Assembly (NCBI GenBank): GCA_010093485.1
Contig: MU001507.1
Coordinates: 756,844-820,843 of the forward strand
Direction of reading: 5' to 3'
DNA length: 64,000 nucleotides
Source of the DNA: Karstenula rhodostoma CBS 690.94
Lineage: Eukaryota; Ascomycota; Dothideomycetes; Pleosporales; Didymosphaeriaceae
This document shows, one piece after another, positions 43,632 through 59,229 of the stretch (the first letter of the stretch is position 1; every line of letters begins with the position of its first letter). A program made the translations under genes and the position numbers. A model generated the notes under the pieces. That model was not told the origin of the DNA. It worked only from the letters and a program-made list of their open reading frames with translations, and did no database searches.

Positions 43632-45702
43632 TCATGCCGACCTATCTGTGATCTTCTCCTCTCGGCCTGACAAAGTTGCCGCAACCTTACCTCCCATCAA
43701 GTGATTGACATCAGGTATGAAAAAACTTGCTATGATCGCCAGCCCACCAAACGCAAGGCTGACCAGGAAGATGGTCTTATAAGCATCCGTATAAGCCCAT
43801 CGGTATGCCTCCGTACCCGCTGCGATAACTTCTGGCGTCAGGCCTTGTACTTTGCTAAGGAGCGCTTCCGAGCCACCTGCCGCTATTGCAGCCATGTAAG
43901 CTGATACTGAGTCAGCGGGTAGTCCTGCTCCTATGACCGCAGGTGGGACTTGGCTTCCGAGTTCCGTAGCAGTCCTCGTGGCCAGGACGACTGAGTAAAT
44001 TGTGCTTGCCACGGTGCTGATTGCGGATCTTGAGGAGCCAGCAACACCGGCAGCTGTACCAATCTCGGCTTGGTCTGGGATAACGATCGTGCAGATGGGT
44101 AAGACTAGGGCTTCATTCCATCCCACAAAGGTCGTGGCGAGCAACATGAATGCAATGGCCATTCCTGGAGTGTCGGGTTTGCACAGAGCGGCGAGGCCAA
44201 GGAAGAGAGTTCCCAGGGTGATAACAGTGAGACATTGTAGTTTCCAATGACCCAGGGACTGCAAAGATGTTAGCTAACCGAACGCGATATCCAGCCTTGC
44301 GATACGAGAGAATAAGACTTACTTTTGCGAACGTTCCTCCGATAATCTCGCCAAACGTGATGCCGACACCCACAACGCAGGAGACAACTCCGCTCCACAT
44401 GAGACGCCCTTCAGCATACACATTTGCTGTCATTTGAGGCCACACAATAGCCTGGCTGTAGTAAACGCTCGCCCCAAGCGATAGGCTTAGCATGGACGCG
44501 ACCCAACCACCATTTTTGAAGAACTCTATGGGTATCAGTGGTTGCGACAACTTGGCGTAGCTCTCGTATACGAATAGCGCTATCAAACACAATATCCCGA
44601 TGATAAGAGGTGCAAGGACGCGAGCATCCACCCACGGATATAGAGTGTTGCCAGAAGAAAGACCAATGATGAAGAGGACCAGTCCAGCCGTATAAAGAAA
44701 GAGTCCACCCCAGTCGAATGTCCGAAGGAACTTTGAGATGTGATCTTTTCCGTGTTTTTGGTGGAATGTCGGTGGGAAGTAGAAGACGGCGTATAATAGC
44801 GCCGTGAGTCCGTTGAGGATGATGAGCAAGTAATATACCCATCGCCAACCTGCACTTGTTTTGAGAATGAACGCGGTCGATATCGCAGCGCCAAAACCAG
44901 CCGTAGGAAAAGAGAAGACGAAGACGATGGAGTTGAATATGACTATACTCGTGGGTACGAAGTCAGTGGTTGCCATGAGCCAGGGATAGATACAAGGTAT
45001 CTATGTCTAAGACATAGCGGCTTTGTACCGGGACGATACGTACACCTTCGCTTCACCGGGACGAGTTCTCCAATCACAAAAGCATAGCTGTAGCCCGTAG
45101 AAGCACTCAATCCAATCAGGACCTGTCCGCCGATCAGCACGTTGATGTTTTTCGCGGTGCTCGCAACGACGGCGCCGATGCATCCGAGTGCCGTTCCCCC
45201 GATGAAGAACCAACGTCGTCCGAAGGTATCCGTAATCCTTCCGACCAATGTAAGACCAACAGCCAATCCCATGGTGTACACGAGAGATAGCCAGATAACG
45301 CTCGATGCTGCGTCCAACGAGACGGCAATTTGACCGAGAACTGTGAGGGATGAGCAGCCATATGTAGCAAACGCCTATGCGTATAATTACCAGGTGCTAC
45401 GAGAGCGAAGCCTGCGGTTGAGGCCTATCGAATGTGTTAACAAGTTGTGATGGCCAACTCTACTCCCCAAGCCAGACTTAGGTCATGCAAATGCAGAGTT
45501 TACTCACCATCAAATTAAGCCCAATAGCAAATGTAGTTCCCAGAAAGAAAGGAGAGTAATAGTATCCCTTCGGAAGCTCTTCAGCTTCTGCGGCGAAGCC
45601 GTGCGCATCCGTCCCGAGGTTTTTGATTTCGTTTCCATCGTGAGAGCTGGAAGCTTGTTCGACATGTTCGGTGTGACTCTTCTCCAATGCAGCGTCTGTC
45701 AT
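43632..45702 (-). CDS. MFS transporter, TRI12 / trichothecene-efflux type
   Basis: Exons 45508-45702, 45391-45424, 45046-45340, 44323-44947 and 43632-44258 give 591 residues, the usual size for this 14-TM family. Motif A appears as GRITDTFGRRWFFIGG, with AVSLDAASSVIWLSL before it. FSFPTAGFGAAISTAFILKTSAGWRWVYYLLIILNG is characteristic of TRI12/siderophore-type pumps, as is TAAGVAGSSRSAISTVASTIYS near the C-terminus. It is a plasma-membrane proton-coupled exporter, probably of a secondary metabolite or toxic compound. It opens the metabolic gene run to its right and diverges from the aldo-keto reductase across a 750 bp shared promoter region. Confidence 0.9.
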
Positions 45703-46453
45703 TTTTGATGCCTTGGAAGGAGATTGAATGATCGTTAATGATACCTGGCAACTTGCGCTTCAAGCCACTAGGAACGTGGGTCATGCCCAGAGGTTGATCT
45801 CCATTTGTACCTACCTGATTTCGCACGGCCATTCCTAGCGCACATTTGGCGCACGGTGATGACTGCTGTCACTATTCATCAACCACACCTACGCGCGCAC
45901 TTGCGGATGTGAGATTCCGTATGACAGACTGCACGATGGCAAGTCTCGCCCAACGCCATCGGCGCTTTCCAAGAGTATTGCGACAAAATGAATAAGTCCA
46001 GACCTATCACAGCTCATCACGGTGAACGTTGAGGTGAGCCGGAAAATGGATTTCCGAAGAATGCACTACTGTAAAATGTGGGGTGTTTGGGAGAAGCGGG
46101 GTCCCCGCACTTGTCTTTTCCAAAGCATACTGTGCTAACTCCGGGGCGTGGAAGCCTGATGCCTTTGAATGTGGCGCTAGCTCGACGCGATTATGGCTAT
46201 GCAGTTCCGAAATTACTGTCTAGAACATCCGCGGACATACACACCGGTGGTGTGGAGGCTGACAGCCAGTCGATTGGAAATAGGTTGATGTTTCCAGCTA
46301 CGACGTTTGACATATGCTTTTGGTCGATAGCCGTGCACCGAAGGCGGAACTACCCAAACCTTGGTCTTGAGATTGTATAGCTTTTCTTTTGAACCTTCTT
46401 CTTCCGATAGCTCTGCTGTTTCAAGCGCCAAATCCGAGTCACACAGTGACATA
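45703..46453. promoter_or_regulatory. Shared divergent promoter of MFS pump and aldo-keto reductase
   Basis: 750 bp between two divergent starts. No coding feature. Divergence suggests co-regulation; I cannot name an operator. AT- and C/T-rich leaders precede both ATGs. Confidence 0.4.
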
Positions 46454-47638
46454 ATGCCGTCGCTTCCGAAAAGACAACTTGGAAAATCTGGCCCTGATGT
46501 CTCAGTATTGGGCTTCGGTGCCATGGGATTGAGTTCTTCCTATGGCAAAGTTGAAGCAAATGAAGCCAGATTTGCAGTGCTAGATCGCGCCTTAGAGCTT
46601 GGTTCTACGTTTTGGGACACCTCCGATGTTTGTATGCATACCCTTGTGCAATGTCGATGTTTCTTCATCATTTTAGGAGATGAACTTACAACCAACAGAT
46701 GCCGACAGCGAGGACCTGCTGAAGTTGTGGTTCGAGCGCACTGGAAAACGCGATCAGATATTCTTGGCCACTAAGTTTGGCGTCACCATCGCGAATGGAA
46801 AACCGACGATGCGAAGTGACCCTGCGTATGTAAGGCAGGCCTGCGAGAAGAGCCTGAGGAGGCTAGGTTTGGACAAGATTGATCTATACTATTGTCACCG
46901 TGTGGACAAGAAGACCCCAATCGAAGAAACGGTAGCTGCTATGGCAGAATTGAAAAAGTGAGTCTCTTCGAAGCATGTTCTTACGCGGAAGTAATGCTCT
47001 GCATAGGGAGGGAAGGATCGGTGCTATCGGTCTCAGTGAAGTCTCTGCTGCTACAATTAGAAGGGCCGAGAAGGTCCACCACATTGATGCGGTGCAGCTC
47101 GAATACAGCCCTTTCACACTTGATATCGAATCCCCCGAGATTGGAATTCTAGAGACATGTCGAGAGCTAGGTATCGCGGTCGTCGCCTACAGTCCGTTGG
47201 GGCGAGGTTTTCTTACCGGTCAAATCAAAAGCCCGGAAGACTTCGAAGAGGGTGATTTCAGAAAGCATGCGCCAAGATACAGCAAGGAAAACTTTCCCAA
47301 GAACCTGAAGCTGGTGCAGACATTACAGGATATCGCTTCCAAGAAGGGTTGCACTGCTGGGCAGTTGAGCCTGGCCTGGTTGATGGCTCAAGGCCTCGAT
47401 ATTATCCCCATTCCGTAAGTAAGACATTGCCGTCCCTGCGATATGCTGACAGGTTGCAAGGGGAACGAAGAAAATCAAGTATCTTGAGGAAAATATCGGT
47501 ACAATCAACGTGCATCTTACAGACGAAGAAGCGAAGCAGATGCGCGCGGAAATTGAGAAGGTCGAAGTCGCTGGGGATAGGTACCCGCCAGCATTTCAGT
47601 CGTATTCTTTCGGGGACACGCCTGAACTCAGCCCCTAG
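46454..47638 (+). CDS. Aldo-keto reductase (AKR13-like)
   Basis: Exons 46454-46631, 46699-46957, 47007-47414 and 47461-47638 give 340 residues. It starts with PKRQLGKSGPDVSVLGFGAMGLS. The catalytic tetrad is readable: Asp in FWDTSDV, Tyr in VYADSED (formed across the first intron), Lys in LATKFGV and His in YYCHRVD. Substrate- and NADPH-binding blocks follow (GAIGLSEVSAATIRRA, AVQLEYSPF, VVAYSPLGRGFLTG, PIPGTKKIKYLEENIG). It should reduce a ketone or aldehyde with NADPH in the cytosol. It sits convergent with the EthD gene, whose stop lies about 90 bp away. Confidence 0.9.
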
Positions 47639-58032: not shown

Positions 58033-58141
58033 ATCTCGAATATCAATGCAGCAACTATATTTATACAGAAGGTCTTATTTCGCTCAATCACAGTTTGCAT
58101 TCTTGGGCTGAGTATTGTTAAGAGATATCTCGAATTGTTGT

Positions 58142-59229
58142 CTAATAGGTCGCAGGCACGATCGACATACGTCCACCATCGGAAATCAGTATGTTGCCGT
58201 CTGTAGCAGTCGATTAGCACGGATATACAGTGGGATTTCCATCCACCTACTCGTGTACGCGCCGGCTCTACTGCACATAAAGATGAGCGCACCACCGGCG
58301 TCTTCAGCAGTGCCAGCTCGTGTGAGGGGTACCACTTCCGGTGAAATAGAACCTTCTTCCGTGAGACTTTTGTCTCCCATCAGTCCCTGAAGGATTTAGT
58401 TTAATGCATCTTCGGATGAAACGGAACACACCTGACTCATATCGCTCGGGTAAACACCTGGACAGAAGCAGTTTGCACGAATGTCGAATCGCCAGTCCGC
58501 TAACATCGTCGAGAGCTGTTTGACGATATGGATAATCTGGGAAGCTCTATCAGGCCCTTCTCGGATGCTCCTCTTCGAGAATGGCAACTCACCGCCATCT
58601 TACTCCCCGCATACGCAAATCCCATTCCAGGCCTTCGACTCATGGCACCGATACTCCCCGTGACGATAAATTGGCTCTTCACGCCTATACTCTTCGCAAC
58701 CCCACTTTCATTACCTTTCCCCAGCAGCCCCAGAAACGCAACTAGCGTGTAAAAGCACGCAGTTGTATTCACCTCATAAGCCTGCGTGAAATCCGCCATC
58801 GGCGTATCCCACAGGTACTTTTGTACCTCCTCTAGGCTCGGCTTACGGTCTTTCGGCAGACCATACATGTCTGGACCAGTGGCACCAGAATTCGCAATCA
58901 CACAGTTAACGAAACCAGAATCTTTTTCGACGTGTGAGACGGCTGCTGAGAGGGATTCTTTGGAGGTGATGTCGCATTGTATCGGAATGATGACCTCTGG
59001 AAAATGCGAAGCGACGGATTCGAGGGCAGGGACGCGTCGGCCGAGGATGTAAACTTTGGAGGCGTGGTTTGTGGCAAGTGTTTTGGCGAACATGGCACCG
59101 ATGCCTTAGGTTTTGGTTAGAGTGTTGAGATTTGAGGTGTTTGGGACGAGAAGTACCGGAACCGCCCCCTGTAATCACGAAGACCATTCCTTTCACACTA
59201 AACAGACTATTAATATCTAGGGTCAACAT
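58142..59229 (-). CDS. Short-chain dehydrogenase/reductase 3
   Basis: Exons 59157-59229, 58593-59104, 58432-58536, 58251-58386 and 58142-58200 give 294 residues. The nucleotide loop TGGGSGIG is split by the first intron. Next come ILGRRVPALES, a NADP-type Arg pair, ANSG in place of NNAG, TGSIGA with Ser, and YAGSK (YxxxK). The tail ends NGNILISDGGRMSI. The third exon must begin at CAG|ATTATC to keep KQLSTMLADW in frame. Larger than the other two SDRs and the last gene of the metabolic run. Plus-strand frames here are shadows. Confidence 0.88.

What the first reader, a model, noticed from the sequence alone, without database searches (positions are those of the whole stretch)
43632..59229. Uncharacterised ten-gene metabolic cluster built around AtuA, EthD, VOC and P450 without a backbone synthase
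Ten consecutive genes all encode small-molecule enzymes or a pump: TRI12-like MFS, AKR, EthD, AtuA/DUF1446, P450, VOC fold, three SDRs and a zinc ADH. Four pairs are divergent with 560-760 bp shared promoters. No PKS, NRPS, terpene cyclase or pathway regulator is present. AtuA is known from bacterial acyclic-terpene catabolism, so a fungal route for breaking down or detoxifying an isoprenoid-like or aromatic compound is a reasonable inference. The order P450 hydroxylation, ADH/SDR oxidation, then AtuA/EthD/VOC steps is a guess.
Basis: partly seen in the sequence, partly recalled or inferred. Interest (0 to 1): 0.82.

Follow-up and report, generated by a model that had tools for sequence, protein, structure and literature searches.

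The report
Conserved fungal cluster around AtuA lyase
Ten neighbouring genes in a Dothideomycete fungus form a largely conserved set of small-molecule enzymes, likely a breakdown pathway with a bacterial-type enzyme that cuts carbon-carbon bonds.

The parts
43632..45702 (-). TRI12-type MFS transporter, 590 aa, 5 exons
   Evidence: linkage in other species not tested
46454..47638 (+). Aldo/keto reductase, 340 aa, 4 exons; best PDB match perakine reductase (3uyi, 2.1e-76)
   Evidence: linked to other cluster genes elsewhere
47726..48170 (-). EthD-domain protein, 133 aa, 2 exons; an orthologue (P0121) models nearest CTB10
48463..50408 (-). AtuA (DUF1446) with fused AtuA_ferredoxin domain, 634 aa, 2 exons; citramalate-lyase-type fold
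50969..52667 (+). Cytochrome P450, 517 aa, 4 exons; motifs AGTETT and FSLGPRGCIG; sources call several orthologues 'pisatin demethylase'
53029..53570 (-). VOC/glyoxalase-fold protein, 160 aa, 2 exons
   Evidence: place in other species inferred from free locus-tag slots only
54335..55135 (+). SDR1, 266 aa, single exon; best PDB match C-alpha-dehydrogenase (4yae, 2.3e-30)
55514..56326 (-). SDR2, 253 aa, 2 exons; best PDB match levodione reductase (1iy8, 8.7e-41) among many SDRs; two paralogues sit beside other AtuA genes
56897..58032 (+). Zinc alcohol dehydrogenase, 343 aa, 3 exons, second intron GC-AG
58142..59229 (-). SDR3, 294 aa, 5 exons; best PDB match Spm14 (9k8q, 9.2e-66)
45703..46453 (.). 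Shared promoter MFS/AKR; one TGCGGGG near 46110
48171..48462 (.). EthD promoter; one TGCGGGG near 48326
50409..50968 (.). Shared promoter AtuA/P450; one TGCGGGG near 50683
53571..54334 (.). Shared promoter VOC/SDR1; no TGCGGGG
56327..56896 (.). Shared promoter SDR2/ADH; one TGCGGGG near 56664
59230..59830 (.). SDR3 promoter stretch examined; one TGCGGGG near 59436

Best explanation
A conserved catabolic or detoxifying metabolic gene cluster of Dothideomycetes. P450 hydroxylates a plant-derived compound; ADH, AKR and the SDRs change the oxidation state of the resulting alcohol and carbonyl groups; EthD and VOC carry out isomerisation, dehydration or ring-opening steps; AtuA, a fused citramalate-lyase-type enzyme, cleaves the bond between a tertiary carbinol and a carboxylate-bearing carbon, releasing acetate or a related acid and leaving a ketone; SDR2 acts close to AtuA in the pathway; the TRI12-type MFS moves substrate or product. 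Shown: the genes, the linkage of eight of them elsewhere, and the AtuA fold (a prediction of high confidence). Inferred from the family: AtuA's reaction. Guessed: the substrate (branched and terpenoid-like first, aromatic second) and the order of steps.
Against: No substrate, expression or knockout data. No CoA ligase, carboxylase or hydratase in the cluster, although bacterial AtuA and two own-genome AtuA paralogues have such neighbours. No regulator in the cluster. Such oxidoreductases also occur in biosynthetic clusters; EthD's nearest solved relative, CTB10, is from recall a cercosporin biosynthesis enzyme. In 80 bacterial AtuA loci SDR2-best-match ORFs occur in 12, EthD and VOC in 0.
Confidence: 0.45

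Rival explanations
1. A tailoring or satellite part of a secondary-metabolite pathway whose backbone synthase lies elsewhere in the genome; the MFS exports the product.
For: P450, SDRs, AKR, EthD and TRI12-type MFS are usual tailoring parts (recalled). EthD is nearest CTB10 (cercosporin role recalled), AKR nearest perakine reductase. Spm14, nearest SDR3, was not looked into.
Against: No synthase among the ten. Orthologues in many genera are mostly 70-90% identical, steadier than I would expect of a biosynthetic cluster (inference). AtuA's fold is that of a lyase known from degradation.
Confidence: 0.24
2. Catabolism of lignin- or phenylpropanoid-derived aromatics rather than terpenoids: P450 demethylates or hydroxylates, SDR1 oxidises a benzylic alcohol, EthD and VOC handle ring-cleavage products.
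For: Sources call several P450 orthologues 'pisatin demethylase'. SDR1's best solved match is C-alpha-dehydrogenase (4yae, 2.3e-30). EthD's fold also matches methylmuconolactone methylisomerase.
Against: The SDR1 match is only about 10 bits ahead of the next SDR; the demethylase name is automatic; no ring-cleaving dioxygenase was identified among the ten; AtuA chemistry at a tertiary alcohol does not fit an intact aromatic ring.
Confidence: 0.2
3. Several independent small pathways that lie together; only some of the ten genes, not necessarily with AtuA, form one pathway.
For: MFS was not tested for linkage; no AtuA listed in 10 of 19 named species; SDR3 has a distant locus tag in one P. sporulosa assembly (DPSP01_013888 against 014340-014346); Elasticomyces shows a changed order and no EthD hit.
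Against: AKR, ADH, SDR1, SDR2, SDR3 and P450 orthologues share contig lengths with AtuA or EthD in many species.
Confidence: 0.11

Closest known systems
Bacterial acyclic terpene utilisation (atuABCDEFGH) operon
   Same: AtuA as C-C lyase next to dehydrogenases (AtuB and AtuG, citronellol/citronellal dehydrogenases; PMC4847356 passages; that they are SDRs is recalled).
   Different: None of the ten fungal genes is a geranyl-CoA carboxylase, acyl-CoA dehydrogenase, hydratase or CoA synthase; P450, EthD, VOC, AKR and TRI12 are extra; bacterial AtuA proteins fetched are 32-40% identical.
Citramalate lyase CmlAB (PDB 9erq, 9evf)
   Same: Fold of large subunit and, more weakly, small subunit.
   Different: Subunits fused in the fungus; 16% identity; the fungal substrate is unknown.
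ThnQ/ThnS of anaerobic naphthalene degradation
   Same: Called AtuA-like lyase, acting at a tertiary hydroxylated carbon (PMC12016498 passages).
   Different: Anaerobic, CoA-ester pathway; no sequence comparison was made here.
Other AtuA genes in the same genome
   Same: C17: AtuA, SDR2-like, EthD and another SDR, with a Zn2Cys6 regulator about 1 kb and a carboxyl-transferase ORF about 5.5 kb away; C1: AtuA with SDR2-like.
   Different: tblastn of the ten proteins found no P450, VOC or ADH match in the 179 kb around these loci; C16:376k sits with two enoyl-CoA hydratases and a MaoC dehydratase.
Fungal catabolic clusters for plant phenylpropanoids (recalled, Gluck-Thaler and Slot; no paper seen)
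   Same: Conserved clusters of oxidoreductases and transporters without a backbone synthase.
   Different: AtuA/EthD as a feature is not one I recall there; not checked.

Membership tests
AtuA (PF07287) family | Full-length match to the Pfam profile over cut-off | tested here: met
   2.1e-157, 524.8 bits against cut-off 22.8, positions 1-436/437
AtuA (PF07287) family | C-terminal AtuA_ferredoxin domain | tested here: met
   PF23544 8.9e-16
Citramalate-lyase-type C-C lyase | Shared fold over the large subunit | tested here: met
Citramalate-lyase-type C-C lyase | Counterpart of the small subunit | tested here: inconclusive
   9evf_B probability 0.99, TMt 0.72, but E 0.057
Citramalate-lyase-type C-C lyase | Lyase activity on a tertiary hydroxy acid | not testable with these tools
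   needs purified enzyme
Acyclic terpene utilisation (Atu) pathway | Geranyl-CoA carboxylase, hydratase and acyl-CoA dehydrogenase encoded with AtuA | tested here: not met
   none of the ten; a carboxyl-transferase ORF lies near a different AtuA on C17
Secondary-metabolite biosynthetic cluster | PKS, NRPS, terpene cyclase or other backbone enzyme in the cluster | tested here: not met
   for the ten genes; the rest of the window only by ten long ORFs
Conserved fungal metabolic gene cluster | Same genes linked in related species | tested here: met
   29 of 201 contig lengths (272 of 273 proteins) carry two or more of eight gene types; MFS not tested, VOC inferred
Conserved fungal metabolic gene cluster | Co-expression | not testable with these tools
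   only a shared heptamer was seen

The most novel reading that the evidence does not exclude
A fungal pathway that takes apart branched, terpenoid-like plant compounds by oxidising them to a free (not CoA-bound) tertiary hydroxy acid and cutting it with a fused AtuA lyase, with P450, EthD and VOC steps in place of the carboxylase-hydratase part of the bacterial Atu route.
Probability: 0.22. Interest if true: 0.75.

Novelty: new variant of a known kind. Interest (0 to 1): 0.55.

Why it matters
Fungal DUF1446/AtuA proteins are common in the search lists and the few papers found that mention them assign no function. A conserved cluster that holds one, plus a solved fold for the family, makes the function testable by one enzyme assay and one deletion. 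If the substrate is a plant terpenoid, it would give these fungi a C-C cleaving route for branched carbon skeletons of a kind worked out in bacteria.

Full report
What is there. The window lies on contig 16 of a 44.3 Mb, 29-contig genome. Its AtuA is 100% identical to a protein of Karstenula rhodostoma CBS 690.94 and its EthD 99% to a partial one, so the source is that fungus or a near-identical one (Pleosporales, Didymosphaeriaceae); the contig lengths differ slightly (1,651,596 here, 1,657,012 in the protein record). AtuA also carries the AtuA_ferredoxin domain, and its first exon lies at 50267-50408. The order is MFS(-) AKR(+) EthD(-) AtuA(-) P450(+) VOC(-) SDR1(+) SDR2(-) ADH(+) SDR3(-), with four divergent gaps of 751, 560, 764 and 570 bp. 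Of ten long ORFs scanned elsewhere in the window, some match RPN7, WD40 or abhydrolase families and others nothing; no regulator was found in the cluster.

Is it conserved. Each of 272 of the 273 listed proteins was assigned to its best cluster gene and grouped by the exact length of its longest contig (a first pass with 130 of them is). This gives 201 lengths, of which 29 carry two or more gene types. Besides Karstenula they include 19 named species: Paraphaeosphaeria 7 gene types; Lentithecium, Massarina and Lindgomyces 6; Polyplosphaeria, Trematosphaeria, Amniculicola and Clohesyomyces 5; the others 2 to 4. Five of the 29 are metagenome contigs under 30 kb: 24407 and 3071 with AtuA+EthD, 17499 and 28907 with AtuA+SDR1, 2712 with P450+SDR1. 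Of the 15 closest AtuA proteins 13 share a length with another cluster gene, of all 120 listed AtuA 15, and of 33 EthD hits 17. Against my reading: 14 of the 29, among them 10 of the 19 named species (such as Lindgomyces, Trematosphaeria, Amniculicola, Clohesyomyces), have no AtuA row, although an 80% identical protein should rank high; it may be hidden in a 90% cluster, mis-annotated or lost.

Order. Locus tags: Paraphaeosphaeria sporulosa DPSP01_014340 SDR2, 014341 SDR1, 014343 P450, 014345 EthD, 014346 AKR; Paraconiothyrium brasiliense SLS60_000060 ADH, 000066 EthD, 000067 AKR; Neocucurbitaria cava N0V83_007781 AtuA, 007782 P450, 007786 ADH. In all three the free slots equal the number of window genes in between; what fills them is inference. 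Elasticomyces elasticus (Mycosphaerellales) has LTR17_017937 SDR1, 017940 AtuA, 017941 P450, 017942 AKR: linked but reordered, with no EthD hit. Lophium (Mytilinidiales) has three types on one 1.5 Mb contig, which shows no close linkage. MFS was not tested.

Within the genome. The AtuA profile matches 18 stretches, some of one gene. Summing exon matches, the two best SDR2 paralogues are at C17:650274-651065 (50%) and C1:1869907-1870894 (43-48%); by single matches alone C7 and C20 stretches (100.7 and 99.6 bits) slightly outscore the best C1 exon (98.4). Both lie within about 1 kb of an AtuA gene. C17 also has an EthD about 2 kb from AtuA, a Zn2Cys6 regulator and a carboxyl-transferase ORF. The AtuA at C16:376k sits with two enoyl-CoA hydratases and a MaoC dehydratase. 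The window's EthD found no paralogue in the genome. A tree of 55 AtuA rows puts the window protein in a 100/100 clade of 21 rows: 13 from Pleosporales and metagenomes, three Sporothrix, Elasticomyces, Halenospora and three further unnamed rows; the paralogue at C16:392k falls in another clade. Long branches make other parts of that tree unsure.

The other enzymes. P450 has its usual motifs and only distant solved relatives. The EthD orthologue P0121 models with pLDDT 86.8 and is nearest CTB10. SDR2 is nearest levodione reductase among many SDRs, cyclohexanol dehydrogenase fifth; SDR1 nearest C-alpha-dehydrogenase by a small margin; SDR3 nearest Spm14; AKR nearest perakine reductase. These are leads, not assignments.

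Bacterial comparison. Among 55 ORFs flanking AtuA in 17 of 80 bacterial loci, biotin carboxylase occurs 8 times, acyl-CoA dehydrogenase 7, enoyl-CoA hydratase 6, carboxyl transferase 3, SDR 3. None but SDR is in the fungal cluster, its main difference.

Regulation. TGCGGGG occurs once in five of six cluster promoters. In random sequences of like composition 0.12 heptamers on average reach five of six; two did here, the other being CTTTTCC; TGCGGGG occurs 23 times in 179 kb elsewhere in the genome. It was found after looking and is a hint only.

Verdict. A real, largely conserved fungal metabolic cluster, not found described in the searches made, with a C-C lyase of known fold. Breakdown or detoxification is likelier than biosynthesis; the substrate is open.

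Noticed in passing
window 42596-42967: Open frame made largely of an SGQLGT-like repeat, probably a minisatellite; seen in the ORF list.
   Followed up: no
window about 62100-63113, minus strand: Signal-peptide-like, cysteine-rich reading frame, with a GFDCSGLV stretch nearby that recalls NlpC/P60 proteins (recalled motif, no Pfam run).
   Followed up: no
G000:C16:376010-377221 and 392600-393836 (L003, L008): Two further AtuA genes on the window's own contig, one beside two enoyl-CoA hydratases and a MaoC dehydratase, one about 2.4 kb from a TRI12-type MFS.
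   Followed up: partly
L021/L022 (G000:C17:646-657 kb): A second AtuA-SDR2-like-EthD group with a Zn2Cys6 regulator and a carboxyl-transferase ORF, perhaps a CoA-type version of the module.
   Followed up: partly
window 57402-57454: ADH needs a GC-AG intron for an open frame.
   Followed up: no
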